This document shows, one piece after another, positions 31,415 through 56,805 of a stretch of DNA of 64,000 bases. Position numbers and translations under genes: made by a program. Source of the DNA: Granulosicoccaceae bacterium (GTDB lineage Bacteria > Pseudomonadota > Gammaproteobacteria > Granulosicoccales > Granulosicoccaceae); NCBI GenBank assembly GCA_020629835.1, contig JAHDCO010000004.1, forward strand, positions 62,001 through 126,000, written 5' to 3'. Below the pieces are notes generated by a model. It made no database searches, was not told the origin of the DNA, and saw only the letters and a list, made by a program, of their open reading frames with translations. Each line of letters opens with the position of its first letter. Within the stretch, counting starts at the first letter, position 1.

Positions 31415-31967
31415 TAACAGGTTAAGCCCCCGCCCTGCGTTAGGCGGATATGAGTTAACGCACGCTGGAATACAGGTAAAAGAACGTGTTGATACCGAGG
31501 TGTTTTCGTTAGCGTGTCGCGAAAGCGAAAAAGCATCCGTTAACGACGGTTTGCAATCCTCTTTGGGGGTTGTTTGGCCCGAAGTGGGATCCTGTTCAGT
31601 CTCAACCGATTCGTCGGTTCGCGTTTTGGGCCTGCAGCGGGATCAGGTTTTTGTTGTGTTGAATTCCAGTCAAGTAACTGATGGTTTGTTAAACGCTTTA
31701 ACTAACGTTGCTTGGTGCACCCAGCAATCAGACAGTTGGGCAACCTTGGAAATTTCTGGCCCGAACCAATATCAGGTGCTCGAATGCACGTGCCCGATCG
31801 ATCTATCTCCTTCGGTGTTCACCGAACATCATGTTGCCCGAACGAGCATGGAACATCTGTCAAGCATCATCTATCGAAACAATGATTCGTTCGTCTTGAT
31901 GACACCCACGTCATCGGCTCGAGGCTTTTTGCATATGATCGAAGAATCTATTCAGTTTGTTGATTGA
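31407..31967 (+). CDS. mgdD: N-methylglutamate dehydrogenase subunit D (SoxG-like)
   Basis: 186 residues from a GTG start at 31407, with GGGGAG seven bases upstream and an 8-base overlap with mgdC. SoxG-type features: an early VFSLACR segment, QVFVVLN, VAWCTQQSDSWATLEISGP and the C-terminal ECTCPIDLSP, ARTSMEHLSSIIYR and SARGFLHMIEES. This gamma subunit is weakly conserved and structurally related to the GcvT fold. Its 3' end overlaps the convergent Fic gene by 16 bp. Confidence 0.85.
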   Translation: MVNNRLSPRPALGGYELTHAGIQVKERVDTEVFSLACRESEKASVNDGLQSSLGVVWPEVGSCSVSTDSSVRVLGLQRDQVFVVLNSSQVTDGLLNALTNVAWCTQQSDSWATLEISGPNQYQVLECTCPIDLSPSVFTEHHVARTSMEHLSSIIYRNNDSFVLMTPTSSARGFLHMIEESIQFVD

Positions 31968-33154
31968 CGAATTGGGTTAACAATCGAGGTATCGTGGGTT
32001 TCATTGCACAACGCATAGCGGGTGCTACGACCTCCTCCTGGTAGTTTTGTCAGGCAACCTTTGGCTACTAAATCCGACAGTTCGCGTGTTGATGTGGCCT
32101 TACTGACCCGCCCTACTTTGCCGTACTTACTGGCGTTTATCCCGTCGATAAAATCTTCGCCCCAGCTATCCAGTAAGCGGTTTAGTACCTTTATCTGACG
32201 CGCGGTTAAGGGTGTTTGTGCGTGCACTTGCCAGAACCGAGCCTTACGCACCACACGGTCGAAGCGATGTTGCCCCTGTTTCATTGCATCCAGCAAGACG
32301 TCTAAAAACCATTCCAGCCAAGTGGTTATGTCCAGCGATCCGCGTTGAGTGGATTCCAGAATGTCGTAATACTCTTTTCGGCGCTTCATGATGGCAGCGC
32401 TTAATGAATAGTATCGAGCACTGATGCCTTCGGCTTGCGCCAGCGCTCTATCCGTTAACGCTCGCGCAACTCGGCCATTACCGTCATCAAAAGGATGTAA
32501 CGTGATAAACCATAAATGCGCTATGCCCGCACGTACAAACGGATTAAGTTCATCAGACCCTGTATTAAACCACTGGTTAAATCGTGAGAGTTCCTTAGCT
32601 AATTCCTGCCCGGGAGGCGCTTCGAAATGCACAGTGGGCCGATCAATGCGCCCTGAGACAACCTGCATTTTGTCGTTGCCCCGGAGTTTTCCTATACGTA
32701 GCCCCGCGTGTTGTTCTGGGTCTGGAAATAACGCGGATTGCCATCGACATAGCTGTGCGGTACTCATGGCTTGATGGATGTCGTTTGTCGCGCTGAGTAG
32801 TAACTGCACCAGGGCATCCGTTTGCTGCGTGCCATTGTTTTTGTGTTGATGTACACCGCCTCGATCCAACCCTAGCTGGGTAACCACCGATGAACGCAGC
32901 GAAGAGACGTCCAGATGCTCTCCTTCGATTTCACTACTGCGCAGCGCAGATGCCACCACCGCATCAATATGCGCAGCGGTAAGTTCTTCGCTGAGTTTGC
33001 CGGTTGGGTTTGCTCTATCCAGTGATTGGTGGCGTTCCAACAAGTGTGTCTGGTGGTGCTCCAGTTCGGACAGTTGGGCACGAACGGCGTCTGAACCCCA
33101 GTCAAACTGCGGTTCCTGATCGGTTTTCCAGCCGGGTAATTCCCAGATATACAT
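31952..33154 (-). CDS. Fic family protein (DUF4172-Fic-winged helix)
   Basis: 400 residues. N-terminal DUF4172-type region (MYIWELPGWKTDQEPQFDW), an inhibitory-helix-like SSEIEG (~72-77) that marks class II Fic proteins, and the catalytic motif HPFDDGNGR (~218-226). The C-terminal ~80 residues look like a winged helix (LTARQIKVLNRLLDSWGE, SKATSTRELSDLVAKGCL). Fic enzymes transfer AMP from ATP to target proteins; the intact inhibitory glutamate implies regulated activity. Dyad repeats lie directly upstream, so the winged helix may bind its own promoter. Targets are unknown. Confidence 0.9.
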   Translation of the reverse strand: MYIWELPGWKTDQEPQFDWGSDAVRAQLSELEHHQTHLLERHQSLDRANPTGKLSEELTAAHIDAVVASALRSSEIEGEHLDVSSLRSSVVTQLGLDRGGVHQHKNNGTQQTDALVQLLLSATNDIHQAMSTAQLCRWQSALFPDPEQHAGLRIGKLRGNDKMQVVSGRIDRPTVHFEAPPGQELAKELSRFNQWFNTGSDELNPFVRAGIAHLWFITLHPFDDGNGRVARALTDRALAQAEGISARYYSLSAAIMKRRKEYYDILESTQRGSLDITTWLEWFLDVLLDAMKQGQHRFDRVVRKARFWQVHAQTPLTARQIKVLNRLLDSWGEDFIDGINASKYGKVGRVSKATSTRELSDLVAKGCLTKLPGGGRSTRYALCNETHDTSIVNPIRQSTN

Positions 33155-33285: not shown

Positions 33286-35814
33286 TCAACCAGGCATTGC
33301 TCGCTGCAACGCATCCAGCAAATCCGCACGGGATACCGGTTTAGACAATCGTTCAAAAAACGTATCTTGCCCCATGGTCTCAAAATCCACTGGGTTACCG
33401 GATAAGGCGATTACTGAAGGTACTGACTCAATGTCAGACTGAGAAAGCATGTCCAACAGATTGTGTGCTCGTCCATCGGGTAAGTTTAAGTCCGTTAATA
33501 CCACGTTAGGCTGGTGCAAAGAACTGAGCAGTAGCGCTTCTTCAATTCGCGACGCCGTTATGACAGACCATCCGTCCAATGATAATGTTCGGGTCAATGC
33601 ATAGCGCGTGTCCGCATCATCCTCAAGAATCAGTACGAGCCCCTTCGACTCTGTTGGCGCTGTCCGAAGCGCGCTTCGCACTTGAGTTCTCGTTTCGGCA
33701 ACTTCTTTACCTGTGGGGGGATTCAGCTGAGCCTCGGATTTATGAGGAGGATTTGTATCGCTATTGCTAGCTTCGGATAGTGTGTAGCCTGCTACTACCT
33801 CTATTAGCTTTGCCTGCTTGACTGGTTTAGATAAAAATTCATTGCACCCGGCGTCAATGCACTGCTGCTGTTCTTCGGGTAATACTGACGCAGTTAACGC
33901 AATAATCGGCTTATCAAAACCCGCCTTTCTCAGTCTGCGCGTAGTGTCAAACCCGTCGAGACCTGGCATACGCATGTCCATAATGACGAGGTCAAAATCG
34001 TTGGCGGCTGATTGCACATGCGTAATGTTGTCTAAAGCTGTTTGACCGTCCGCCATGGCCACCACGGTAGCGCCCGCGGTTTCTAAGTGCCATTGCAAAA
34101 AGCTTCGAATATCTGGCCGATCATCCACCACCAGAACATTGGCTGTGATTGGAAAAACGGTGGCCGGTTGCATTTCTGGTAACGTGGCTTTGCGCTTGAC
34201 CGGTTCGATAAGCGTGGATGATGCGTCGGAGTCTACGGGTAAGTGGAATGAGAAGATACTTCCTTTTCCGGGCTCACTGATTAAACTCATTCGGCCACCC
34301 AGTAATGAGGCGAGACGTCGACAAATCGACAACCCCAAACCGGTTCCTTCATCGCGATCGCTACCATCGGTGTTGAGTTGCACAAAAGGTTTGAATAAAT
34401 CCTCCTGCTGGGCACCGCTGATTCCGATGCCGTGATCTATGACGTCAAAAGTGAGCGTTTGACTATCTGTTTTACCAAAACTCACCCGCAATTGAATATC
34501 GTAGGCCTGCGAAAAATTAGGACGGGTAAATTTAACCGCATTGCTGAGTAGATTGATCAGAATCTGACGAATTTTTACCGCGTCGCTAACAATCACTTCA
34601 GGTACCGCCGACGTGTATTCAACGTCAAAACGTAAATTATTCGATTCAGCTTTCAGTTCCATTAGTGTCGAAACGTCGCTTATCAAAGATTGCAAATCGG
34701 TCTCACTACGTTTAACTGGAAGCTTACCTGCCTCAATTTTCGCAAGGTCCAACACATCGGCTACGATAGCTTCCAGGTATTCGACGTTTTGACGTATTAC
34801 TGACGTGGCATGCAAATCATCGGGATCGGTAAGCGTGTGTTCCAGAATTTCTGCAAATCCGAGAATAGCAGCCAAAGGCGTCCTCACTTCATGGCTCATA
34901 CTCGCTAAGAAACTGCTCTTGGATCGGCTTTCTGCAACTGCCGCGGCTTGCGAAAGCTTCGCTCTGTCGATGGCTTCGTGTACGCGGTTCTGTTCTCGTT
35001 TGCGATCGGTGATATCGGAAAACGCGAACGCCACGCAGTTTGGCCCAATGTCGCCATAGCGAAACGCGTGTACGTCAAACCAGCGGTCGCCTAACGCCGG
35101 TGAATGTTCTTCAAAACGTACGGGTTCGTTCGTAGCTACCACATCAGCAAATCGAGCTAACCAATGGTGTTCTATGTCTGGAAGCACTTCTTTGATACGT
35201 TTTCCTTTAACGTTAGCAAGATGCGCCTGAGCCTCGAAATGGCTGTTGGTCACCAGGTACAGCCAATCTACTGCTTTGCCCTTTTCATCGAATATCAGCT
35301 CCACCACAGCGAAGCCAAAATCAAAGGATTCGAATAGATCTTTGGACTCTGCTTTGTGCTCTTCCAGATTGGCGATTAAGTTTATGCGCGCAGTAATATC
35401 GTTGGTAACGGCAACATAATGAGAAAGCTCTCCGTGCCGATCGAACATCGGTGAGAGTCGCAAATCGTTCCAAAACGGCTCTCCATTGGCTCTGTAATTA
35501 AGCACGGTGACGTTGCAGCTGGTTTTGCGATCGATTGCATCGCGTATCTTTGCAACGGCTTCAGGGTCAGTGTCCTTGCCTTGCAAAAATCGACAATTCT
35601 GACCGGTGATCTCGTCGCTCGAGTAACCCGTCATTTGCTCAAACGACTGATTGACATACGTTAGTGGTTGATCCGGTTTCCGGGCGTCTGAAATCAGCAC
35701 ACCGTCACGGATCGCTGTAAGCGCACTTGCCTGCCATCGCACCATGGCGAGCAATTCGTCTTGGCTCAAGCGATTTAAATTGGTCAATTTCAGTTTGTTT
35801 TTTCCGTTGTCCAT
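33286..35814 (-). CDS. LOV-domain hybrid histidine kinase with two receiver domains
   Basis: 842 residues from the ATG at 35814 (a GTG two codons upstream is possible). Order: LOV domain (~35-145) with the flavin-adduct motif GQNCRFLQG and NGEPFWNDLRLSP; second PAS (~160-285); HisKA with SHEVRTPLAAILGFAEIL (His ~308); HATPase (NLLSNAVKF, DEGTGLGLSICRRL); REC1 (phospho-Asp in VIMDMRMPG, ~611); REC2 (VLTDLNLPD, ~771). The LOV cysteine that forms the photo-adduct with FMN is present, so blue-light sensing is likely. The usual flavin-contacting glutamine near the end of LOV (GVQTD) reads AVTND here. No transmembrane segment; cytoplasmic. Confidence 0.9.
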   Translation of the reverse strand: MDNGKNKLKLTNLNRLSQDELLAMVRWQASALTAIRDGVLISDARKPDQPLTYVNQSFEQMTGYSSDEITGQNCRFLQGKDTDPEAVAKIRDAIDRKTSCNVTVLNYRANGEPFWNDLRLSPMFDRHGELSHYVAVTNDITARINLIANLEEHKAESKDLFESFDFGFAVVELIFDEKGKAVDWLYLVTNSHFEAQAHLANVKGKRIKEVLPDIEHHWLARFADVVATNEPVRFEEHSPALGDRWFDVHAFRYGDIGPNCVAFAFSDITDRKREQNRVHEAIDRAKLSQAAAVAESRSKSSFLASMSHEVRTPLAAILGFAEILEHTLTDPDDLHATSVIRQNVEYLEAIVADVLDLAKIEAGKLPVKRSETDLQSLISDVSTLMELKAESNNLRFDVEYTSAVPEVIVSDAVKIRQILINLLSNAVKFTRPNFSQAYDIQLRVSFGKTDSQTLTFDVIDHGIGISGAQQEDLFKPFVQLNTDGSDRDEGTGLGLSICRRLASLLGGRMSLISEPGKGSIFSFHLPVDSDASSTLIEPVKRKATLPEMQPATVFPITANVLVVDDRPDIRSFLQWHLETAGATVVAMADGQTALDNITHVQSAANDFDLVIMDMRMPGLDGFDTTRRLRKAGFDKPIIALTASVLPEEQQQCIDAGCNEFLSKPVKQAKLIEVVAGYTLSEASNSDTNPPHKSEAQLNPPTGKEVAETRTQVRSALRTAPTESKGLVLILEDDADTRYALTRTLSLDGWSVITASRIEEALLLSSLHQPNVVLTDLNLPDGRAHNLLDMLSQSDIESVPSVIALSGNPVDFETMGQDTFFERLSKPVSRADLLDALQRAMPG

Positions 35815-36142
35815 CGTCACACGAAACTACGCACCTGAAATATCAGGCTTGGTCAGAGTTATACAGCTGGGTGGGTCCGGTACCTTGTAAATATGAGTCA
35901 GGCGGCTGGGTGCCGGGCGGACCGTGGGATTACTTCTTTTACGCGTGGTGCTAATTTGAGATCACCACCGTTTGTCAACACATTTGTGCTTTTTACAAAA
36001 ACACTTATGTCTTTTTCGTCTCTTGAAATTAAGGCATTGGCAAGAACCGAGCATCTCTGTGTAAATATCACAAACCGTACATCCTTATTGCGTGGCTTGA
36101 TAAGTTTACCCAACCACTACGATCCTCGCCCAGGTGACGCCT
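35815..36142. other. divergent intergenic region between LOV kinase and sigma-like gene
   Basis: About 330 bp without a convincing gene. It must carry the promoters of the two divergent genes, consistent with coregulation by light or stress. I see no clear operator. Confidence 0.35.
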
Positions 36143-36520
36143 GTGTTAAACAATCCCGAAAATGCAACAGACCATGAAGCGCATGGACGCATTGACCAGT
36201 GCTTACGGCAATTGTCTATGGGCGAGGATGTCGAAATTTTCTCAGAAATTTATGACTACTATGCAGGACGGGTATTGACTCTGTTGCATTCGCGCGGGAT
36301 TCAGTCCGTTGACGCAGAACATTACATGCAAGACATCATGCTCCAGGTTTGGCGCTCGGCAAGGTTGTACGACGCGAACACCGTGTCATCCAGCACTTGG
36401 ATTTTTGGGCTAGCGCGAGATTATCTACTAGAGAACGTGCGTGGAGAACCTCGAGTGGAATGTGATTTTGCATCTCAATCGGACACTTTATGTTCTGGCC
36501 GACCGACAAACGCAGTCTGA
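36143..36520 (+). CDS. sigma-70 region-2-like protein lacking region 4
   Basis: 125 residues from the GTG at 36143 (AGGTG six bases upstream). The core resembles ECF sigma region 2: FSEIYDYYAGRVLTLLHSRG, AEHYMQDIMLQVWRSARLYD and TWIFGLARDYLLENVRGEP. After that the reading frame ends within ~25 residues, with no region 4 helix-turn-helix. The 3' 46 bp overlap the convergent udgX gene, so the downstream half may have been lost by fusion of the two loci. It may be a vestige, or a region-2-only protein that binds core polymerase. Confidence 0.6.
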   Translation: MLNNPENATDHEAHGRIDQCLRQLSMGEDVEIFSEIYDYYAGRVLTLLHSRGIQSVDAEHYMQDIMLQVWRSARLYDANTVSSSTWIFGLARDYLLENVRGEPRVECDFASQSDTLCSGRPTNAV

Positions 36521-38070
36521 AGGTCCTGCTCGAATGTTCGCCGCGCTAATTTTCTGACGTCCTGGTCTTTCGTTCGAAGAATGGCTGAGGGATGGTTAGT
36601 GATGAAAACGGGTACATCGAAAGGCCCCCGTTCCCACGTGCCCCGTTTACCGTTAATTGATACGTCGTAGCCTTGTAGTGATTTTGCAGCACTGCGTCCT
36701 AACGCAACGATACGCTGAGGTTGAATAAGACGGATTTCATCGATAAGCCAGGGCCGACAGTTGTTTATAGAAGATTCGGTGGGCCGGGCGTGCAGCCGGC
36801 GTTTACCTTTTACTGAGTACTTAAAATGCTTTACCGCATTAGTAAAGTAAAGAGTCCAACCTTCAATGGCTGTTTCTTGTAACACATGACGCAACAAGGT
36901 TCCCGCGGGGCCTTGAAATGGAAGGCCTGAGAGATCTTCAGTGTCACCGGGTTGTTCACCCACTATCATCACGACGTTCTGTTGATTTTCGCGACCAATA
37001 GTACCTATTTCATCGTTAATGACACGAGACGATGGGGTATTCATGCGAACAGTTTGGAATTGCCCGAATACAGACTGCGTGGCCTTTGAGGCGTGTTCGC
37101 ACAGCTCACAGGCAGACACTTGCTTTGCCAGCTGTATCAGCGACGTTGCTTGAGACTTTTCGGTTAACGGCGCACGGCTTTTCGATCGATCGACCGCTTT
37201 TTCTGCAAATTTTGGGGCTGAAGTTCCCTCTCGATTCAACATAGACTGCGTACGAACATGCGAGTTGTGTATTAATTCAGCGATGAGCGGTGCTTCGGGG
37301 AGATTCTTCCAGTACTTCACGGGCATTTCGCTTTGCATGGCATCAATGCGCAGCCGTGCTGGGTTAAAGGTATTGGCGAAATAACTGCACCAAAGATTCT
37401 CCATGCCTTCAGCATCCGGTAACGTATCTTTTGCACCGCCAGCGCCAAACACGATGCGTTCGCCGTTCCAATGAGCACTGTCCTCGGGTGTATAGATCGA
37501 CCAGTTCATGTTGGTAAAGCGCTTCATAAAGAAATCACTGGTTAATCGTAAGATGTGATGATCCGGTTCAAACCACGCGATGTACTGCTCAGGCTCCTCT
37601 GTCGAGGTCCGCTCATAACCATCTACCTGTGCTTGATTTTCCAGCTTTCTAAATCGCACAAACGCCGTCATCTTGTGCCGGTCTCTTGATACTGATCGAC
37701 GTAAGTTGTGAGCCCGATGAACATCGTCATCACACGGGTTTTTAAGTAAGTCCGGTTCACCGTGGGTCATGCGCCATAGAATGCGATACAACAACGCGAA
37801 CCGGGTGGGTTCGTTATGGCACACCACGTACTGACTCAATCGAATAAAGTCATGTGGTACCGAAAACGTCGCTCTTGATACGTTGGAAGACTGAGTAGGA
37901 ATTTCTTTTTTATAAGGTGTATCGCTGCTGATATCACCAAACAGATCGCCTGACTCTAAACCGGCCAACCACACGACATCCTCCGGTGGGGTGCCATCAT
38001 GCAGTAAGGCTCGAGCCTTGTTACGCCAGCCATCGAAATCAGCCGGGTGTGCAAGTTGGATTTGCTGCAT
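36475..38070 (-). CDS. udgX: UdgX-family uracil-DNA-binding protein fused to DUF4130-type domain
   Basis: 531 residues. The N-terminal ~290 match the TIGR03915/DUF4130 partner (LLYRILWRMTHG, RRSVSRDRHKMTAFVRFRKL, YIAWFEPDHHILRLTSDFF). The C-terminal part is a family-4-like uracil DNA glycosylase: Fe-S cysteines in CELCEHA and NNCRPWL, catalytic-site GEQPGDTED, PFQGPAGTLL, and the UdgX-specific loop GKRRLH with histidine at about 427. In characterised UdgX that histidine forms a covalent bond with the uracil site in DNA. Its start overlaps the radical-SAM stop by one base, and the operon begins with a LexA box. Confidence 0.92.
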   Translation of the reverse strand: MQQIQLAHPADFDGWRNKARALLHDGTPPEDVVWLAGLESGDLFGDISSDTPYKKEIPTQSSNVSRATFSVPHDFIRLSQYVVCHNEPTRFALLYRILWRMTHGEPDLLKNPCDDDVHRAHNLRRSVSRDRHKMTAFVRFRKLENQAQVDGYERTSTEEPEQYIAWFEPDHHILRLTSDFFMKRFTNMNWSIYTPEDSAHWNGERIVFGAGGAKDTLPDAEGMENLWCSYFANTFNPARLRIDAMQSEMPVKYWKNLPEAPLIAELIHNSHVRTQSMLNREGTSAPKFAEKAVDRSKSRAPLTEKSQATSLIQLAKQVSACELCEHASKATQSVFGQFQTVRMNTPSSRVINDEIGTIGRENQQNVVMIVGEQPGDTEDLSGLPFQGPAGTLLRHVLQETAIEGWTLYFTNAVKHFKYSVKGKRRLHARPTESSINNCRPWLIDEIRLIQPQRIVALGRSAAKSLQGYDVSINGKRGTWERGPFDVPVFITNHPSAILRTKDQDVRKLARRTFEQDLQTAFVGRPEHKVSD

Positions 38071-39404
38071 TAGCTAAAAAGATCTAACTGCGCTGACGGC
38101 AATAAAAGCTGCTGTTTAAGTAAATCGCTATCGGGTGAGGTTTTCGGATACCAATCGGCGGTAACAACAAACGGCAACATACGAGATACCGAACGAGACA
38201 TCTTTTTTAAATCGGCAAGGCGAACTGGGGACACGCGGCGAGCGTTAAGAATGCGAAACACGCCTTTGATGCCAAGGCCCGGTACTCGAAGGAGTTGGTG
38301 TTTGTCTGCTCGATTAACATCGACGGGAAACCACTCACGATGTTTTAACGCCCATGCAAGCTTGGGATCAATGTCGGGTTCTAACATGCCCTGCTCACCA
38401 CCTGCCACGATCTCCGGCACACTAAAATCGTAAAAACGCATGAGCCAGTCAGCTTGATACAGACGGTGCTCTCGATTTAAATTGGCCGGCGTTAAAGGCA
38501 ACTGTTGGCTCGAGTCCGGTATGGGGCTGAACGCTGAATAAAACACCCGTTTGAGACGGTAGGAGCCGTACAAAGATTCACTGCAGGCCAGCAACTCGCC
38601 ATCGTCGGATTCATCCGCACCCACAATCATTTGTGTACTTTGCCCGCCTCGCGCAAAGGAAGCAGGCGCTGCGCCGGAATGGCTTTTGTCTCGGCTTTCG
38701 TCCAGTTTCACTCGGATGGCTGCCATGGATTTGCGGATACTCGGCGCGTCTTTTTGTGGTGCAAGCTGTTGCAAACTTTTTCGGTTTGCCAGTTCGATAT
38801 TGATAGACAAGCGATCGGCGTACCGCCCTGCTTCGGTGAGTAAATCATCGCTTGCCTCAGGAATCGTTTTTAAATGAATGTATCCCCGAAAGTGATGCTG
38901 CTGTCTTAATCGCCGAGCCACTTCAACCACTTGTTCCATCGTGTAGTCGGGAGATTGAATAATTCCTGAGGACAGAAACAGCCCTTCGATGTAATTACGC
39001 TTATAGAACGACAGCGTAAGCTTGATTACCTCATCTATCGAAAATCGAGCGCGTGGCACATTGCTGGACACCCGGTTTACGCAATACAAGCAATCAAATG
39101 TACAAAAATTGGTGAGAAGGATTTTCAGCAGAGAAATGCACCGCCCGTCGGGTGCGTACGAATGACAAATTCCTGCACCACCTGAGGAACCGATGCCCGC
39201 TTTGTTCAAGGAATTTCGGTGTTCGGAGCCGCTGGACGAGCATGACGCATCGTACTTTGCTGCATCGGCAAGGATAGCCAGTTTGTTCTGTAATCGTATG
39301 GGTAACGCCGGAGGGTGACTGAATCCAGCATCGTTCGAACGGCTTGGTGCGGACGAGGATGGTTTAGGACGTGTTTCAGTATTGATCTTAGCGATACTGT
39401 TCAT
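38070..39404 (-). CDS. UDG-linked radical SAM protein (putative DNA modification/repair)
   Basis: 444 residues from the ATG at 39404; a GTG at 39422 is an alternative. The radical SAM cluster motif is CTFDCLYC (about residues 101-108), preceded by DGRCISLLKILLTN. The fold continues with GLFLSSGI, HLKTIPEAS and RLSINIELA; a C-terminal helix-hairpin-helix (RVPGLGIKGVFRIL) implies DNA binding. This is the partner almost always found beside UdgX/DUF4130 genes (TIGR03916). The reaction is unknown. A LexA operator covers the start codon. Confidence 0.92.
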   Translation of the reverse strand: MNSIAKINTETRPKPSSSAPSRSNDAGFSHPPALPIRLQNKLAILADAAKYDASCSSSGSEHRNSLNKAGIGSSGGAGICHSYAPDGRCISLLKILLTNFCTFDCLYCVNRVSSNVPRARFSIDEVIKLTLSFYKRNYIEGLFLSSGIIQSPDYTMEQVVEVARRLRQQHHFRGYIHLKTIPEASDDLLTEAGRYADRLSINIELANRKSLQQLAPQKDAPSIRKSMAAIRVKLDESRDKSHSGAAPASFARGGQSTQMIVGADESDDGELLACSESLYGSYRLKRVFYSAFSPIPDSSQQLPLTPANLNREHRLYQADWLMRFYDFSVPEIVAGGEQGMLEPDIDPKLAWALKHREWFPVDVNRADKHQLLRVPGLGIKGVFRILNARRVSPVRLADLKKMSRSVSRMLPFVVTADWYPKTSPDSDLLKQQLLLPSAQLDLFS

Positions 39405-39414
39405 AATTACAGTA
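39395..39414 (-). promoter_or_regulatory. LexA (SOS) operator at the radical-SAM/udgX operon
   Basis: TACTGT-N8-ACAGTA: both hexamers match the gammaproteobacterial LexA consensus exactly (39395-39400 and 39409-39414). It overlaps the ATG at 39404. A -10-like TATACT on the minus strand ends six bases before that ATG, so the transcript may be leaderless and repression would block initiation directly. Confidence 0.85.
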
Positions 39415-39529
39415 TACAACACTAAAGATCAAACAGGCACATCTGCTGCGCCTGAAACGCTTGCTCGGGTCTAGATCTGCTTTGTCGACTCGTAAAGTGT
39501 CAAGGCTGCCCCGGCAGGTCTGCTAACCA

Positions 39530-48013: not shown

Positions 48014-49441
48014 CTACTGTACAGCCTTCAGTCGGTTATACAGCGTTTTAAGACTGACACCCAAAAGCTTCGATGCTTTTTGCTTGTTGCCGTTCACCGA
48101 TTCCAACGTTGCAAACATCAGTTTGCGCTCTAAATCCCAGAAACTTTCTCCCACAAAACTGTTGATTGCTGAATCAGCCGTGGATTGAAGGTTAGGAAGC
48201 AGCCGGGAATTCATAACCATTTCTTCACCATCCTCTGTTGCCGTGTAGGAGGTAAGCAACACGTTTTTGAACTCGGTGAAGTTACCTGGCCATGCGTATT
48301 TTTCCAGACATTGTTTAAGTTCGGCGGATACGGATTTTTCCGAACCAAACAGGTGATTCATTTCAGCAACTGCCACGTCAATCAATGAGCTGATATCGCC
48401 ACCGCGCTCTCTTAAAGGCGGCACAGCAATCTCGTTGCGAGCCAGTAAGTAATACAATTCGGGTAACAATCTTCCGCTGTTCAAAGCGGTCTCGGCAGGT
48501 TCTCTTAATACTGCCAGAATTACCAAAGCAGACTTCGAGGCATTCAACGCTCCATTAGGTCGATACTGTCCCGTTCTCAGGTAATCCAGTATTGCCGATT
48601 GCAAGTGCTTAGGTAGGTGCGTAAGGTCGTCCAAAAGCAACGAACCTTTCCCCGCTCTTTGAAAGTACCCTTCCTCAATGTTTGCCTCAGTTTTTGTGTG
48701 ATTCGCTTCAGAGGGTGCTTGCCCAAAAAATCGGGTTGTCGCCAACGCATCGTTCTCTACACCGCAGTTTACATAAATAAGCGGTTGATCAGAATACCGA
48801 TGCTTGTGCACCAATGAGGCGATCTCTGGTTTTAGTACACCGGGTTCGCCGGTCACCAGCGTGTGCATGAACGTCGATCTTGCCGCACTTTTAATCGAAG
48901 ATCTCAAAACACAGCTTTCCTTAGAATCTCCGTTCAGGCCGATGACTCGTGACGGCATCTCGAACATTTCATCATAGTAGTGAATGCGTTGCCTGCTTTC
49001 TGCGCGAGTAATTCGGTTTAACGACCCAATGAGTTCCTGAGCACTGACGGGTTTCTGTAAATAATCGAAAGCGCCCGCCCGCAAACAGTCCAGTGTCGTG
49101 TCCATGTTTTGAGAGCCGGTCACTACAATGATATTCCTGACGTTGTATTCGCCCAGCGTTTGTATGAGACTAACTCCACCTCCATCTGGTAAACCAAGAT
49201 CGACTAAAGCGATGCTCGGAGGAGAAATCCTGACGGCCTCTTGCGCTTCACTAATGGAATAGCAAGCTGATGCGTTATACCCCGCCCGCTGGATGATCTT
49301 GCACAGTAAGTCTGCGGTATCCCGATTGTCTTCAACGACTAAAATTGAATGAGAAGCCCGAGTATCAGATGGTGTTTTCCGCTGATTTTGTTTGCTTTGA
49401 ACACGACCGGTCTGTGGGGTAACCTCGATTGAGGAAATCAT
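48014..49441 (-). CDS. NtrC-like response regulator with degenerate AAA domain (paralogue 1)
   Basis: 475 residues. REC domain (~32-150; phospho-Asp in IALVDLGLPDG, Lys in DYLQKPVS), then an NtrC-type AAA-like domain (~165-405) and a Fis-type helix-turn-helix (KASKLLGVSLKTLYNRLKAV). The Walker A equivalent is TGEPGVLKPE, the Walker B equivalent LLLDDL, and there is no GAFTGA loop: that region reads FGQAPSEANHTKTEANIEEG. Sigma-54 activation is therefore unlikely; it probably acts as a sigma-70-type regulator or scaffold. Eleven bases downstream of a second paralogue on the same strand. Confidence 0.88.
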   Translation of the reverse strand: MISSIEVTPQTGRVQSKQNQRKTPSDTRASHSILVVEDNRDTADLLCKIIQRAGYNASACYSISEAQEAVRISPPSIALVDLGLPDGGGVSLIQTLGEYNVRNIIVVTGSQNMDTTLDCLRAGAFDYLQKPVSAQELIGSLNRITRAESRQRIHYYDEMFEMPSRVIGLNGDSKESCVLRSSIKSAARSTFMHTLVTGEPGVLKPEIASLVHKHRYSDQPLIYVNCGVENDALATTRFFGQAPSEANHTKTEANIEEGYFQRAGKGSLLLDDLTHLPKHLQSAILDYLRTGQYRPNGALNASKSALVILAVLREPAETALNSGRLLPELYYLLARNEIAVPPLRERGGDISSLIDVAVAEMNHLFGSEKSVSAELKQCLEKYAWPGNFTEFKNVLLTSYTATEDGEEMVMNSRLLPNLQSTADSAINSFVGESFWDLERKLMFATLESVNGNKQKASKLLGVSLKTLYNRLKAVQ

Positions 49442-49452
49442 TAAAACATCCT

Positions 49453-50793
49453 TTATTGGTAGGCGTTAATGCGGTTGTATAAGGTTTTTAAACTGATACC
49501 CAGCATTTTGGCGGTCGCTCGTTTGTCGCCGGCATGATGGTCCAAAGTGGCCAGAAGCAGCTGTTTTTCCAGCTGCCAAAACGAAGTCCCCACCAATTGG
49601 TCGATATCACGTACCTGCTCATCTTCTTGAGGAGCGTTGGTGAGTAAATGGGTAATTTCCGATTCGTTTTCGGCCATATCCGCGGCTGCTGTATCGAGTG
49701 CCATAGATAGCTCCAGGACGTTGTTAGGCCAACTGTGTTTAGCGATTAGATCTTCCGCCTCGGCAGAGAGCTTGATCGCTCTGTCATGCTTTTGCGATAA
49801 CACCTGACAGTAATATCGAGAAAATCGAATGGCATCGTCGATACACTGCCGTAAGGCAGGAACTCGGAGGGTGTATTGGGCCAGGTGAAAATACAGATCT
49901 GACCGGAGCGATTCGGATTCTAAAATATTGGTGGATTGTTCCTGACAGATGCTCACGGTGGCGACTGATACCCCAATTCCGTTTCGGCCATTCACACGTC
50001 GAAATCGTCCGGTTTTCATGAAAGACAGTAGTCTCGATTGTAGGGACGGGTGTAGCTCGGTAATGTCGTCGATGACCAAGGTGCCTCCTGCGGCCTGTTC
50101 CAGATAGCCTTTGTGCAGGCAGTCGCCGGTTTCGGGGTCCTCCAGGCCAAATAAACGTTCAGTTACTCGAGCATCATTTTCTGCAGCGCAGTTCATTCGC
50201 ACCAGTGGCCCACCTCGGCGACTGCGTTCGTGGATAAGTTCGGCAACCGAAAACTTTTGTGTTCCGCTTTCGCCCTCGATCAAAACATGACTGGTTGGGT
50301 GGGATGCAACCCGACCGATCATGATTTTTAGTTGCTGCAACACTGGCGAGTGCCCCACTTCAACCCAAGACGTGATTTCGTTGCTACTTGGGTCGTTAGC
50401 CGCTTCGTTGATGAGCTCGTTTTGCTGCGTGCGGGGTTGTATCGCACGCTTTAGCTGTGCAAGGTCCACGGGTTTTACGAGTACGTCCCTGGCTCTGCAC
50501 TTGATGCTTTTTATGACGGATTGTTGGGAAGTGTTACCGCTGATAACGATAAATCGGTCTTTTGTGGAATTGTTCAATTCCGCCATGAGGTCCAGCCCAT
50601 TTCCGTCGGGAAGGTCTATGTCTACCAGCATGAGTTTGGGTGCTTTTTCGAGGATAATCCGGCGCGCATCCGCGACGCGATGTGCGGTCGACACCTCATA
50701 GCCCTGTGACTGAAGCACTTGAGAGAACAGACCGGATAACGCCAAATCATCATCGAGTACGAGTGCAGAAGGCGGTTCGAATGGAGTAGCCAT
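49453..50793 (-). CDS. NtrC-like response regulator with degenerate AAA domain (paralogue 2)
   Basis: 446 residues: REC (phospho-Asp in LMLVDIDLPDGNG, Lys in VLVKPVD), AAA-like domain and Fis-type HTH (ATAKMLGISLKTLYNRINAY). Walker A is nearly normal but reads EGESGTQKF, Walker B is LVIDDI, and the GAFTGA segment is replaced by FGLEDPETGDCLHKGYLEQA. The layout and C-terminus LVGTSFWQLEKQLLLATLDH match paralogues 1 and 3. Cotranscribed with paralogue 1. Target genes unknown; neighbouring stress genes are candidates. Confidence 0.88.
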   Translation of the reverse strand: MATPFEPPSALVLDDDLALSGLFSQVLQSQGYEVSTAHRVADARRIILEKAPKLMLVDIDLPDGNGLDLMAELNNSTKDRFIVISGNTSQQSVIKSIKCRARDVLVKPVDLAQLKRAIQPRTQQNELINEAANDPSSNEITSWVEVGHSPVLQQLKIMIGRVASHPTSHVLIEGESGTQKFSVAELIHERSRRGGPLVRMNCAAENDARVTERLFGLEDPETGDCLHKGYLEQAAGGTLVIDDITELHPSLQSRLLSFMKTGRFRRVNGRNGIGVSVATVSICQEQSTNILESESLRSDLYFHLAQYTLRVPALRQCIDDAIRFSRYYCQVLSQKHDRAIKLSAEAEDLIAKHSWPNNVLELSMALDTAAADMAENESEITHLLTNAPQEDEQVRDIDQLVGTSFWQLEKQLLLATLDHHAGDKRATAKMLGISLKTLYNRINAYQ

Positions 50794-51056
50794 GGTGGAA
50801 GGGCCCTATGGAATGAGTCAGTTAGCCAATTTAGCGAGCTTAAAGTCGCATCAGAAACGCTGATATCAGGCAGGATAGTGTTGGCTTTCGGATGAATCTC
50901 CACGCTTGTCATTTTTACAACGACAGCGCCACTGAACCCTGTAAGGTCAAATACTCAAGCTCTACAGGGAAAATCCGCGCCCGTGATGGGGGCGGATCTA
51001 CTTAGCAAACAGGCATCAGAGAATGCACAGGATTTAAAGACAGCGAGTGCATTACT
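50794..51056. other. divergent promoter region with two dyads
   Basis: About 260 bp between paralogue 2 and the CheB gene. CCCTGTA (50937-50943) pairs with TACAGGG (50963-50969), and ATCCGC (50973-50978) with GCGGAT (50992-50997) plus an inner CCC/GGG. These could be operators or a structured leader of the cheB-like gene; no start or promoter can be fixed. Confidence 0.4.
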
Positions 51057-51671
51057 ATGAGCGAAGAGAAGCGACCACACGGCCAGATCATAATTATCGG
51101 AGCGTCCGCCGGAGGGCTCGAACCACTGCAGACTATCTTCAGCCAGCTGCCCGCTGATTTCTCTATCCCGATTGTTGTCGTACGCCACTCGCTGCCCTCC
51201 AGGCCCTCGTTGCTGACAGACGTACTTGGAGCCTCGAGTAATTTAGCGGTTCGTACCATCAAACACGACTCATTCATTACCCCAGCCGCCGTTCATGTTG
51301 TGCCCTCATCACACAACGTAGCTTTCAAGGCCGCCGAAGACGGCGAGATAAAGTTTGTGTTGGTCGAGCAGGAGCGTGAGCTGGGGCCCACACCGAACAT
51401 TGATTTGACCATTGTGTCTGCCGCTCAGCATTTTGGGAGCAATTGCACAGCCGTTATACTCAGTGGTTACTTGGATGACGGGACTGAAGGCGCTAAATTT
51501 TTGGCTAAAGTTGGCGGCACAACAATTGTGCAGTCGCCGGATGATGCGCAGCACGATTCCATGCCGCTAAACATTGTGTGGCGTGATTCTCCTGAACACA
51601 TTACCCATCAGCAACAGATCGCTAAATTGTTATTGGATCTGGAGCACCGAGCCGCACATTCTGCAGCGTGA
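51057..51671 (+). CDS. stand-alone CheB-type methylesterase domain
   Basis: 204 residues with no receiver domain. Catalytic features of CheB: IIIIGASAGGLEPLQTIFSQ (Ser), VVVRHSLPSRP (His, normally QH), VVPSSHNVAF and the aspartate in ILSGYLDDGTEGAKF. CheB removes methyl groups from chemoreceptor glutamates. No chemoreceptor gene is nearby; it directly precedes a giant kinase that has its own CheB domain and may be a partner of it. Confidence 0.87.
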   Translation: MSEEKRPHGQIIIIGASAGGLEPLQTIFSQLPADFSIPIVVVRHSLPSRPSLLTDVLGASSNLAVRTIKHDSFITPAAVHVVPSSHNVAFKAAEDGEIKFVLVEQERELGPTPNIDLTIVSAAQHFGSNCTAVILSGYLDDGTEGAKFLAKVGGTTIVQSPDDAQHDSMPLNIVWRDSPEHITHQQQIAKLLLDLEHRAAHSAA

Positions 51672-51727
51672 TCCGAGCTGCTATACGAACGAATAACGTT
51701 GTTAAAAGAATACTGTCATAGGTAACG

Positions 51728-54700
51728 ATGAAAAGAATTGTAGGAATCGGGGCTTCCGCCGGTGGATTGGAAGCATTAGAAGATCTGTTTGCCAACATGC
51801 CCGAAAAATCGGGCTACGCCTTCGTTATCGTGCAGCACTTATCGCCTGACTTCAAGAGCCATATGGATGAGCTCATTCGTCGGGTTACGAATATCCCTGT
51901 TCATGTTGCTACCGAGAATATGGAGGTTCATAAGGACAACATTTATCTGATCCCAGCCAAGAAGGTCATGGTGATATCCAACAATAAGTTGCATCTCACC
52001 GATCGGCCGCGTGAAGATGTTTTAACGCACCCCATCGATCAGTTTTTTCGTGCACTTGCCAACGATATGGGCAAAGATGCGGTGGCCATTGTTTTATCCG
52101 GCACGGGTAGTGATGGCTCGAGAGGGGTTCAGGCTATTGCTGCGGCGCATGGTTTGGTTATCAGCCAGGACGACACATCTGCCCGGTTCGATGGCATGCC
52201 GCTGAATGCGCAAGCTACTGGCTGTGTGCATGCGGTTATGGCGCCAGGGGAAATGCCCGAGGCACTCACGCTGTATCGGCAAAAATCTTTAACTCCTCGG
52301 CAGCTAAAAGCGGAAATTTCTTCAGACGACACAGCGGTATTGGCAACGATTTTTGACGCTGTAAAAAGTAAACGCGGCGTTGACTTCAGCAACTATAAAC
52401 CCAGCACGGTGGGTCGGCGGATTGAGCGTCGAATGGGACTTTTGCACATAGACGATATCGGTGAATACGCGCGCCGTGTTGAGGCCGATCCGCAAGAAGC
52501 TGAGGATCTGTACAAAGATCTTTTGATCGGTGTGACGCGATTTTTTCGGGATTCGGATGCGTTTAAAATTGTCGAAGACACTATCCTTCCGGACCTTATT
52601 GATCGAGCCCTGTCGACGAACACAATTCGAATATGGGTTGCCGGATGTGCGTCGGGTGAAGAAGTGTATTCCATCGCGATGATGTTGCATGAGCAGCTAC
52701 CCTCTTCCAGCGAAATCGAAGTAAAGATTTTTGCCACCGATATTCATCAAGGCTCGCTGGACACGGCAGCTCGAGGAATTTACCCTGAAGATGCGGTAAA
52801 GGAGCTGTCGGATGATCGCCGCGAACGGTATTTTCAGAAGAACAAGTTAGGCTGGCAGGTGTCGCCTGCGTTGCGCGACATGGTGGTCTTCGCCTCTCAC
52901 AATGTATTCAGCGATGCGCCCTTCACACAACTTGACTTGGTGTCGTGCAGAAACCTGTTGATCTACCTAAACCCGCAGGCTCAGAAAAAAGCCTTGTCGT
53001 TGTTTCACTTTGCGCTTAAGAGCGGCGGGTACCTGTTCTTAGGCCCCAGTGAAACCCCAGGTGAGATTGATGATGAATTTACGACGGTGGATGGGCGTCG
53101 GCGCATTTACCGAAAGCGTCGCGATGTGCGTTTGCCGCTGGACTCACGCATGCCGTTTCATGCGGGCACCACCGTTCCCCAAATGCCGCGTGGCTCCACA
53201 CGTAGGGCTACTGTTACAGACACTCGCCCTGATATGTCGTTGCTGGCCATATACGACCGTCTGCTCGATGAGTACATGCCCGCATCCATTCTGGTTGATG
53301 AAAGTTATCGAATTCTGCATACCTTTGGTGGCGCTCAGAAATACCTTGAATTTAAAGCCGGCCGGCTGGATGTGAGCGTTGTGGAGGTGATTGCGCCTGA
53401 ACTTAAAACAACGCTATCTGGTGCGCTGCAGCACACCATCAGAGAACAAAACGAAGTGCACTATACCTGTCAGATCAATGGGCAGGAGGATGGCTCTGAC
53501 GAACCCTATACGCTGCATATCATTGCAAAGCCGATTGTTGATCAACGTACGCATATTTTAAATATCCTGGTTACGTTGAGGCGTGAAGATCGCGTTATGG
53601 ATGCGAAAGCATCCGAACCGGAGGCTACCGTAGTCAGCGTTAACGAGATGGACAAAGCTCGTATCGCATCACTAGAAGCTGAGCTTAGGTACTCAAGAGA
53701 GAACCTGCAGGCCACGATTGAAGAACTGGAAACGTCCAATGAAGAGCTGCAAGCTGCGAATGAAGAAATGCTTGCCAGTAATGAAGAGCTAAACAGTACC
53801 AACGAAGAAATTCAGTCGGTTAACGAAGAACTGTTTACGGTAAATACTGAGCATCAGAAAAAGATCCATGAACTTTCGGTGGCAACCGATGACATGGACA
53901 ACCTGCTCAACCTGACAAAAGTGGGCGTAATCTTCATCGATGATGACTTGTGCATCCGTCGGTTTACGCCTGAAATTGGTAAGACGTTTAATTTGGTGAC
54001 ACATGATGTCGGTCGGCCAATCGACGGTTTCTTACATAATTTCAGAAAAGAGAACATTGACGACTCCATACGTTCGGTTATACACACGGGTTCGAAAATC
54101 GAACGTACGGTGTTTGATGAGCGCTCCAGACCCTTTTTGATGCGCATGTCGCCTTACAACCGCACAGAAGGTGCTTCTGGTGTGGTCATGTTTATCACTG
54201 ACATAAGCTCGGTCCTGAATACCGAAAATGATTTAGCGCTGCACCGTTACATGACTGAACAAGCCCGTGACGGTCAGGCACTGTTGGATCGAGAAGGTAA
54301 CTTCATTTACGTTAATCCTGCTTACGCCACGATGACAGGCTATGCGGTTGACGAGCTTTTAGAAATGAAAGTGTCAGACGTTGATCTGATACATGACAAA
54401 AGCTTGTACCGAGATGTGTTTGAGCGCAGCGCGGCGGATGACATCAGCATGTTCCCATCAAGGTTACGGCGTAAAACCGGTGAAATTGTTGAAACCGAAA
54501 TTACGGTAAATACGATCGAGTTACAGGGCACCCAGCACCTCTTTGCCGCGATACGCGACGTCACTCGGTACAAGGCCGCACGTCAGAGCCTTGCTAACAG
54601 TGAAAGTCTGGTCCAAACCTTGGTGGGGTCTGCTGCTATTGGAATTTTTGTTGTAAGCGACACCGGGATTCTTACCTACTGCAATCCAGAAATGCTGCGC

Positions 54701-56488
54701 TTACTCGGTTATGACACCAGCGCTAACTTCATTGGGGTGAACATACGTAGCGTTGTAAAAGCCGACTCTGAAGGGGCGTCAGAGTTTCTCGATAATATTG
54801 ATCAGCAGTTGTCTGTTCGTAATCGTCAGGTAGAGTTTGTTTGTGAAAACGGCGACAGCATACCTGTCGAGTACAACGCTGAGGCTATTCAATCTGATAA
54901 GGCGAATCCTGGATACGTTGTGTCTTTTGAAGATATCTCTCATCGCTTTGAATCGCAAAATGCGTTGGTTCAAGCCACCGCTCGTGCGGAGATGGCAAAT
55001 AAAGCCAAGAGCGAATTTCTGGCAAATATGAGTCACGAAATCAGAACCCCGTTGACTGCGATCATGGGCCATATCGACTTGATGCGAACCAACTTAAATA
55101 CCGAGGAAGAAATCGCTGGCGCGACAGCGATAAAACGTAACGCGATTCATTTACTCGACGTGGTCAACGACATACTTGACCTATCCAAAATCGAAAATAA
55201 CACATTAGAAATTGTTCATGAGAAAGTCTCAGTTCCTGAGCTCATCGCTGATCTTTACCAAATGATGTTAGTGCGAGTGGAAGAAAAGAATCTGTATTTT
55301 GATGTGAAAATGGATACACCAATTCCAGAGTTTATCGAGACAGACCGACTCAGATTGCGTCAAGTACTCATAAATCTTACTGCCAACGCAATCAAGTTCA
55401 CCCCTTCGGGTGGTGTAACGATTCGCTTAAGGCATTGGGTTGATCAACTCACCATTTCGGTGGCGGATACGGGTATAGGCATCCAGAAATCCTCGTTAGA
55501 AAATTTGTTCCAGCCGTTCGTTCGTGGTGGCACGCAGATTGTGGCGGAAGGCACCGGCCTCGGGCTGAGTATTTGCCGACGACTGATGGATCAAATGGAA
55601 GGAGAGATCTCGGTTACCAGTCAGCCTGGCAAAGGCAGTGTATTTTCAGTGACTTTGCCGGCTAAAAACGACCACGGGTCAAGGATGATTAATTCCATTA
55701 CGCTTGACACACATGAGGAATCAGAGCGTACTGACAAAGATGATAGCTTTGTATCGCTTAAAGGTAGCATTCTAATCGTTGAGGACGTTCCGGATATCGT
55801 GAACGTCATACGTTCACTGATGGAACAATCCGGGGCCACGGTATCCGTTGCAAACGACGGTGAAGAGGCGGTGAAAAAAGTGTTGGAAAACCCGTCGCTG
55901 TATGATTTGTTATTGATGGATGTGCAGATGCCCAATAAAGATGGACTAACTGCCGTACGTGAATTGCGGGAACAGGGTTACGACAAACCGATTATAGCGC
56001 TCACCGCTCAAGCCATGATTGGTGACTACCAACGATGCATTGAAGCCGGTTACACCGACTATATTTCCAAGCCCATCGATTTAAAGGCACTTACCAGTAA
56101 GATTCAGTTGTTTCTTCAACCGGATACGGTTAACACTAAAAAACTATTGTTTGTGGAAGATCATTTTGCAAGTGCAGAGGTGATGAAACGCATTGCGGTG
56201 CGGTCCGGGCAGTTGTCGGAGTTTGCATTGAAGGGGCAGGATGCGTTGGAGATTGCCCATTACTTCAATCCGGATATCTGTGTTATCGACATTAACCTCC
56301 CGGATATGACTGGACATGAGTTATTAAAAGCGTTTAAACAGATACCAGCGCTTTCGAATACCAAATTTGTCGCGCTAACCGGGCAGGAGCCAGAGAATGG
56401 CATGGAGCAATACATCAGGGCTGGCTTCGACGATGCTTTGCTCAAACCTGTGGACGCCGCATCATTGAGAAAGATATGGACAGAGTAA
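51728..56488 (+). CDS. CheB-CheR-PAS-histidine kinase-REC-REC hybrid sensor
   Basis: 1586 residues, no transmembrane segment. Order: CheB (~1-190; GIGASAGGLEAL, VQHLSPDF, LSGTGSDGSRG), CheR methyltransferase (~200-470; SAM motif WVAGCASGEEVYSIAMM, SCRNLLIYL), PAS-like region, a coiled coil with repeating NEEL units (~660-715), PAS domains (~720-1080), HisKA with SHEIRTPLTAI (His ~1102), HATPase (NLTANAIKF, EGTGLGLSICRRL), REC1 (Asp ~1396, LLLMDVQMPNKDG) and REC2 (Asp ~1519, ICVIDINLPDMTG). It is thought that the CheB/CheR parts modify the sensor or partners. Probably the hub of this signalling island. Confidence 0.92.
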   Translation: MKRIVGIGASAGGLEALEDLFANMPEKSGYAFVIVQHLSPDFKSHMDELIRRVTNIPVHVATENMEVHKDNIYLIPAKKVMVISNNKLHLTDRPREDVLTHPIDQFFRALANDMGKDAVAIVLSGTGSDGSRGVQAIAAAHGLVISQDDTSARFDGMPLNAQATGCVHAVMAPGEMPEALTLYRQKSLTPRQLKAEISSDDTAVLATIFDAVKSKRGVDFSNYKPSTVGRRIERRMGLLHIDDIGEYARRVEADPQEAEDLYKDLLIGVTRFFRDSDAFKIVEDTILPDLIDRALSTNTIRIWVAGCASGEEVYSIAMMLHEQLPSSSEIEVKIFATDIHQGSLDTAARGIYPEDAVKELSDDRRERYFQKNKLGWQVSPALRDMVVFASHNVFSDAPFTQLDLVSCRNLLIYLNPQAQKKALSLFHFALKSGGYLFLGPSETPGEIDDEFTTVDGRRRIYRKRRDVRLPLDSRMPFHAGTTVPQMPRGSTRRATVTDTRPDMSLLAIYDRLLDEYMPASILVDESYRILHTFGGAQKYLEFKAGRLDVSVVEVIAPELKTTLSGALQHTIREQNEVHYTCQINGQEDGSDEPYTLHIIAKPIVDQRTHILNILVTLRREDRVMDAKASEPEATVVSVNEMDKARIASLEAELRYSRENLQATIEELETSNEELQAANEEMLASNEELNSTNEEIQSVNEELFTVNTEHQKKIHELSVATDDMDNLLNLTKVGVIFIDDDLCIRRFTPEIGKTFNLVTHDVGRPIDGFLHNFRKENIDDSIRSVIHTGSKIERTVFDERSRPFLMRMSPYNRTEGASGVVMFITDISSVLNTENDLALHRYMTEQARDGQALLDREGNFIYVNPAYATMTGYAVDELLEMKVSDVDLIHDKSLYRDVFERSAADDISMFPSRLRRKTGEIVETEITVNTIELQGTQHLFAAIRDVTRYKAARQSLANSESLVQTLVGSAAIGIFVVSDTGILTYCNPEMLRLLGYDTSANFIGVNIRSVVKADSEGASEFLDNIDQQLSVRNRQVEFVCENGDSIPVEYNAEAIQSDKANPGYVVSFEDISHRFESQNALVQATARAEMANKAKSEFLANMSHEIRTPLTAIMGHIDLMRTNLNTEEEIAGATAIKRNAIHLLDVVNDILDLSKIENNTLEIVHEKVSVPELIADLYQMMLVRVEEKNLYFDVKMDTPIPEFIETDRLRLRQVLINLTANAIKFTPSGGVTIRLRHWVDQLTISVADTGIGIQKSSLENLFQPFVRGGTQIVAEGTGLGLSICRRLMDQMEGEISVTSQPGKGSVFSVTLPAKNDHGSRMINSITLDTHEESERTDKDDSFVSLKGSILIVEDVPDIVNVIRSLMEQSGATVSVANDGEEAVKKVLENPSLYDLLLMDVQMPNKDGLTAVRELREQGYDKPIIALTAQAMIGDYQRCIEAGYTDYISKPIDLKALTSKIQLFLQPDTVNTKKLLFVEDHFASAEVMKRIAVRSGQLSEFALKGQDALEIAHYFNPDICVIDINLPDMTGHELLKAFKQIPALSNTKFVALTGQEPENGMEQYIRAGFDDALLKPVDAASLRKIWTE

Positions 56489-56585
56489 ACTGCACAAGTG
56501 CTACAGCTGAAAATTTAGTTACGGTTCTGTTTGCATGTTTGGCTGGCGATGAGGACTTTATGGCGCGACCGAGGAAAATGCCGCG

Positions 56586-56783
56586 ATGAACGATTCAACC
56601 GAAATCTCATTGCAGGATAGATTGGATCAGCTGATGCACGATATACGCACACCGCTTCAAGCAGCCAAACTTCGAACTGAACTTCTGTTGTTGGACTGCA
56701 GCGATGGAGAATTGGAAGAACAGCTAAACGGAATACTTGATTCCATCGACGACGCCGTGAGCCTTGTTCAAAAGCATGATTAA
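56586..56783 (+). CDS. stand-alone histidine-phosphoacceptor (HisKA-only) mini-protein
   Basis: 65 residues that are almost entirely a kinase dimerisation/phosphoacceptor hairpin: LDQLMHDIRTPLQAAKLRTE with the phospho-His at residue 18, then a second helix LEEQLNGILDSIDDAVSLVQ. There is no ATPase domain and no remnant of one before the stop. GAGGAAAA precedes the ATG. The TPLQAA motif is shared with the kinase at 61825-63009. It could serve as an HPt-like relay or as a dimerisation inhibitor. Follows the giant kinase by 97 bp. Confidence 0.7.
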   Translation: MNDSTEISLQDRLDQLMHDIRTPLQAAKLRTELLLLDCSDGELEEQLNGILDSIDDAVSLVQKHD

Positions 56784-56805
56784 ATCTGATTGATCTTAAT
56801 AAGGA

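What the first reader, a model, noticed from the sequence alone, without database searches (positions are those of the whole stretch)
33286..35814. LOV hybrid kinase with altered flavin-contacting residue
GQNCRFLQG proves a LOV core with the photoactive cysteine, yet the position usually occupied by the signalling glutamine reads Thr or Asn (AVTND). The photocycle or signal output may be unusual.
Basis: partly seen in the sequence, partly recalled or inferred. Interest (0 to 1): 0.5.

Follow-up and report, generated by a model that had tools for sequence, protein, structure and literature searches.

The report
Blue-light kinase lacking its usual glutamine
A bacterial gene encodes a blue-light-sensing kinase in which the amino acid usually thought to pass on the light signal is replaced by threonine; such natural replacements are already known and the sensor most likely still works.

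Summary
The ORF is on the MINUS strand (35814 to 33286, 842 aa) and encodes LOV–PAS-like–HisKA–HATPase–REC–REC. The adduct cysteine is C74. The residue at the position of the signalling glutamine is Thr137; the neighbouring Asn138 is not the site. Gap-free sequence alignments and a confident AlphaFold model (pLDDT 92.7) put Thr137 exactly where CrLOV1 and phot2-LOV2 carry Gln, and no other Gln lies on strand Iβ. The rest of the flavin pocket and the kinase and receiver motifs are intact.

"LOV-deltaQ" receptors are published (Dietler 2022, PMC9098866: about 350, some with Thr). An engineered LOV kinase tolerated most of the 19 substitutions, and a natural one responded to light. I therefore expect a working, blue-shifted, probably slower-recovering photoreceptor.

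Two additions. Among 52 strict LOV domains from a phylum-level sample, 7 lack the Gln. In the window's own genus 9 of 10 Cys-bearing LOVs lack it (Thr, Ala, Leu, Ile, Met), in at least three gene lineages; 6 of 6 from the rest of the family keep it. This kinase is the only LOV domain in its genome, and no BLUF or phytochrome was found. New member of a known kind; modest interest.

The parts
33286..35814 (-). LOV-PAS-HisKA-HATPase-REC-REC hybrid histidine kinase, 842 aa (alternative GTG start at 35820)
35389..35706 (-). LOV domain (PAS_9, residues 37-142)
35593..35595 (-). adduct-forming cysteine C74 (TGT) in GQNCRFLQG
   Evidence: collinear structure alignment
35404..35406 (-). Thr137 (ACC) at the position of the conserved signalling Gln, strand I-beta
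34996..35250 (-). PAS_4-like second PAS domain between LOV and kinase (residues about 189-273, below Pfam's cut-off)
   Evidence: 20.2 bits against a cut-off of 23.1
34876..34896 (-). HisKA H-box SHEVRTP
34330..34554 (-). HATPase N-box, DHGIGI and GTGLGL motifs
33793..34137 (-). first receiver domain (residues 560-674) with the DD/D/T/K pattern
33328..33630 (-). second receiver domain: ILEDDAD, VLTDLNLPDG, LSGN and LSKPVSR present
   Evidence: (two Response_reg stretches)

Best explanation
This is a soluble blue-light hybrid histidine kinase of the LOV-deltaQ type. Flavin is bound in an otherwise canonical pocket. Blue light makes the C74-flavin adduct and protonates N5. Without Gln, the change reaches the beta-sheet through water that enters the pocket or through the small polar Thr137 side chain, then passes through the C-terminal helix and the second PAS-like domain to HisKA, changing autophosphorylation and relay through the two receiver domains to an unknown partner. 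Shown: domain order, residue identity, intact motifs, fold prediction. Inferred: flavin binding, photocycle, signal path, output, solubility.
For: C74 and every other LOV hallmark except Gln are present: 9 of 9 residues in the census, and N73, R75, L77, Q78, N106, N116 as in nearly all reference LOVs. The AlphaFold model has pLDDT 92.7 and aligns to 9vf7_C at Z 21.7, rmsd 1.1 over 137 residues. Kinase and receiver motifs are intact. Full-length relatives in three congeneric genomes (40% identity) also lack Gln (Ile, Leu, Leu) yet keep Cys, R, FLQ, N, N, and their kinase cores group with this one (100/97 support). Published experiments show most substitutions leave signalling working (PMC9098866).
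Against: No experiment on this protein. Thr at this site is not described individually in the text: Q123T and Q513T have no occurrence. The three full-length relatives carry Asp instead of Asn before the Cys, and other LOV copies in the genus have lost the Cys as well (Pro or Ser; L033, L150, L151), so relaxed constraint in this lineage is possible. The LOV-domain tree does not group this LOV with those relatives, although one clade is not rejected (p-AU 0.446).
Confidence: 0.75

Rival explanations
1. The LOV domain still forms the adduct, but coupling to the kinase is lost or minimal. The protein now senses something else (redox, or via the second PAS), and Gln loss is a step in decay of light sensing.
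For: In the same genus several LOV copies without Gln have also lost the Cys: L150 (Pro, Met at the Gln site), L151 (Ser, Met); L033 lost Cys but kept Gln. The Gln position varies freely (T/I/L/L) among full-length relatives.
Against: The Cys and the flavin-contacting N, R and Q residues are all kept in this protein and its three full-length relatives, apart from Asn to Asp before the Cys in those three. Published deltaQ proteins mostly still signal.
Confidence: 0.15
2. Thr137 directly replaces Gln by hydrogen bonding to flavin O4/N5, giving a near-normal spectrum and signalling.
For: Thr is polar and sits at the Gln site of the same strand by structure alignment.
Against: The Thr side chain is shorter than Gln; relatives have non-polar Leu or Ile at this site, so polarity is not conserved. 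The structure model has no flavin, so no distance was measured.
Confidence: 0.07
3. A sequencing or assembly error produced the Thr.
For: Draft genome of 149 contigs.
Against: Thr (ACC) differs from a Gln codon (CAA or CAG) at more than one base; the ORF is open over 842 codons; independent congeneric genomes also lack Gln.
Confidence: 0.02

Closest known systems
LOV-deltaQ receptors (Dietler et al. 2022, PMC9098866)
   Same: Cys and other LOV hallmarks present, Gln replaced; Thr is named among natural replacements
   Different: The tested natural example is a Met-bearing LOV-GGDEF from Mesorhizobium loti; this one is a Thr-bearing hybrid kinase with two receivers
Meiothermus ruber Mrub_1259 LOV histidine kinase (PDB 9vf7, 9vf8)
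   Same: Closest solved LOV by sequence and fold (E 5e-37; Z 21.7)
   Different: Has Gln (GIQSD) where this has Thr
Brucella abortus LOV-HK (PDB 6ph4, 6pps)
   Same: LOV-PAS-HK order; soluble blue-light kinase (recalled)
   Different: Its deposited construct is LOV-PAS-HK, without receiver domains; recalled: it has the Gln and an HWE-type kinase
YF1 / Bacillus subtilis YtvA (PDB 4gcz, 2pr5)
   Same: LOV fold with about 40-44% identity; the YF1 Gln-to-X series is the direct experimental precedent
   Different: Native Gln123; engineered kinase with a separate response regulator

Membership tests
LOV photoreceptor domain | PAS fold with GxNCRFLQ and adduct Cys | tested here: met
   C74 collinear with chain position 57 of 1n9l and 426 of 4eer
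LOV photoreceptor domain | conserved Gln on strand I-beta | tested here: not met
   Thr137 at the site, no other Gln on the strand; hence filed under LOV-deltaQ, where this feature is absent by definition
LOV-deltaQ (Dietler 2022 definition) | at least 8 of 9 named LOV residues, Gln absent | tested here: met
   9 of 9 present, Thr at the Gln site; definition read
LOV photoreceptor domain | flavin binding and blue-light adduct photocycle | not testable with these tools
   needs purified protein and spectra
hybrid histidine kinase | HisKA H-box, HATPase N/G boxes, receiver Asp | tested here: met
any NCBIfam equivalog (TorS, ArcB, YtvA_fam, BluLightHisKinLov) | score above the curated cut-off | tested here: not met
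   all 25 families shown, of 163 matched, are below cut-off

The most novel reading that the evidence does not exclude
In the window's genus (name not verified) Gln-free LOV domains have become the rule in hybrid kinases: at least three gene lineages lost the Gln, the residue then drifted (Thr, Ala, Leu, Ile, Met), and the adduct Cys was usually kept. This would be a natural lineage in which LOV signalling has moved permanently to a Gln-independent relay, perhaps selected for slow recovery in dim light.
Probability: 0.3. Interest if true: 0.45.

Novelty: new member of a known kind. Interest (0 to 1): 0.22.

Why it matters
It adds a natural Thr-bearing hybrid kinase to a small set of Gln-free LOV receptors, of which one natural member was tested in the paper read. 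As the only LOV domain found in its genome, with no BLUF or phytochrome, it offers a clean test of whether Gln-free LOV signalling has a physiological role. The genus-wide pattern gives a set of natural replacements for comparing adduct lifetime and signal strength.

Tried and rejected
1. Asn138 as the altered residue: rejected, it lies one residue after the Gln site.

2. A compensating Gln elsewhere on the strand: none.

3. A compensating Gly-to-Ala change two residues before the Gln site. It looked strong on the first set: non-Gly in 8 of 107 Gln-bearing against 9 of 17 Gln-less. It faded on the larger set: 34 of 152 against 11 of 24 (Fisher p 0.022), because a separate Gln-bearing group (FFASQ) also has Ala. 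The tree-aware test was not significant (median p 1, one pair on starred branches). Dropped.

4. Conserved gene neighbourhood: no shared neighbours by eye around the relatives L164-L166 and the window; not tested formally.

5. Operon with the Fic-domain gene downstream: a terminator-like hairpin lies between them at 33245-33216, but the number of such hits in the region (5) is no more than in shuffles (mean 4.2), so this is left open.

6. A Fisher test used 6 of 51 for the phylum sample because I took the one Thr there for the window's own; it is L212. Corrected to 7 of 52 (p 5e-6 against 9 of 10). Rows are related, so neither p is a true probability.

8. Paper searches: Granulosicoccus with LOV, blue light or photoreceptor (at least 2 of 4 terms; 14,869 papers, 15 listed): none of the 15 listed holds the genus name. 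Gln-free LOV searches led to PMC9098866 as the one paper on the subject that I opened.

Full report
What is there. The finding's coordinates hold one ORF on the minus strand, ATG at 35814 and stop ending at 33286, 842 residues (the plus strand reading of the same stretch has many stops). Pfam finds PAS_9 at 37-142, HisKA 299-363, HATPase_c 411-528 and Response_reg in two stretches. A second PAS-like stretch at about 189-273 scores below Pfam's cut-off. The H-box, N-box, G-boxes and the DD/D/T(S)/K residues of both receivers are present. No NCBIfam cut-off is reached by the 25 families shown.

The residue. GQNCRFLQG gives C74. The best solved relatives by sequence, 9vf7/9vf8 and the Chlamydomonas LOV1 chains, align without gaps through the end of the domain, and their Gln (GIQSD, GVQVD) pairs with Thr137 (the first search was cut before that site). 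An AlphaFold model built on 37 sequences has mean pLDDT 92.7 and places Thr137 (model residue 130) in the last strand, 123-132. VIA-align gives collinear, gap-free alignments that put model C67 and T130 on positions 57 and 120 of 1n9l and on 426 and 489 of 4eer; that these are the known Cys and Gln positions is recalled numbering consistent. There is no Gln in the strand.

The rest of the pocket is ordinary. Of positions mapped from AsLOV2 numbering (offset by Cys450 = C74; list recalled), N73, R75, L77, Q78, R91, N106, N116 and L118 are the majority residue of 144 Gln-bearing reference LOVs. Gly at the place of AsLOV2 N414 is also the commonest residue there, 95 of 144.

How common. I counted LOV domains that keep the Cys and at least 8 of 9 hallmark residues. 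A codon pattern for NCRFLQ...WN found 54 places in 398 genomes drawn from the window's phylum (35 genomes with a match). One is the window's own; one more, L196, gave no counted row (it is the same place in G409 as class locus L132). That leaves 52: 45 Gln, 4 Leu, 2 Ile, 1 Thr (L212). The 29 best class-level loci, of about 70 places listed, gave 28 at 7 or more hallmarks with the Cys, all Gln; L125 and L145 lack the Cys and L144 gave two. The last two sets were chosen by likeness to the window.

The window's own family. Of 48 genomes (further stretches), 16 distinct LOV domains had the Cys and at least 7 hallmarks: 7 Gln, 3 Leu, 2 Met, 2 Ala, 1 Ile, 1 Thr. Split by genus by hand with the tables: the window's genus has 9 without Gln and 1 with (L027, a distant row), the rest of the family 0 without and 6 with (L013, L015, L017-L020). 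Against the phylum sample (7 of 52) Fisher gives 5e-6, but rows are related. Rows dropped: L034 has Cys but only 6 hallmarks (Leu at the site); L033, L150, L151, L035, L037 and L029 lack the Cys. Three of these, L033, L150 and L151, are from the genus and near the Leu/Met group; they show that Cys loss also happens there.

Lineages. The 187-row LOV tree needs at least 19 changes between Gln and not-Gln; it has few columns and 77 of 184 inner branches open. In it the window's LOV sits beside Gln-bearing Roseibium LOVs (support 88), not beside its full-length relatives. Those are in G043, G044 and G045 (40% identity over about 830 residues), with Leu, Leu, Ile. By kinase core the four form a clade (100/97), and the LOV data do not reject them as one clade (p-AU 0.446). 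So either one old Gln loss followed by drift, or separate losses. The Ala pair (L010/L014; full-length L168/L167) groups by kinase core with the CheB-CheR kinase of the window's genome, L002, a different lineage; the Leu/Met group (L011, L012, L149) is a third.

Mechanism. Published work (PMC9098866: sections 6 and 9 read, other passages seen) replaced this Gln by all 19 residues in the LOV kinase YF1; Pro, His, Trp, Tyr and Arg are named as abolishing the response. It found about an 8 nm blue shift, 10-fold slower recovery for Q123L, and weaker responses in some assays, and proposed water as the relay. About 350 natural Gln-free LOVs were listed, Thr among the replacements, and one with Met responded to light. 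The present protein fits that class, and I expect the same behaviour. Flavin binding, photocycle and output are not shown here.

Context. The own genome (97% complete) holds one LOV domain, no BLUF, no PHY and two places matching the photolyase family.

Verdict. Confirmed residue change, known category, ordinary expected function; the genus pattern is the only new element and rests on few, related sequences.

Noticed in passing
36134-36520 (+): Short ORF, divergent from the kinase gene, that matches only sigma-70 region 2 (Pfam 34.8 bits) and ends within an opposing gene; looks like a truncated ECF sigma factor.
   Followed up: partly
36475-39422 (-): Adjacent UdgX-family uracil-DNA binding protein fused to a TIGR03915 domain, and its linked radical SAM protein TIGR03916, all above their NCBIfam cut-offs: a putative DNA-repair pair.
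   Followed up: partly
48014-58149: Cluster of three NtrC-type regulators (receiver, sigma-54 domain, Fis HTH) around a 1586-aa CheB-CheR-PAS-kinase-REC-REC protein. Two of their receivers are among the genome's matches to the second receiver of the LOV kinase.
   Followed up: partly
31952-33154 (-): DUF4172-Fic domain protein directly downstream of the LOV kinase on the same strand.
   Followed up: partly
L033, L150, L151: Congeneric LOV-like domains in which the adduct Cys is Pro or Ser while other hallmarks remain; two of the three also lack Gln.
   Followed up: partly
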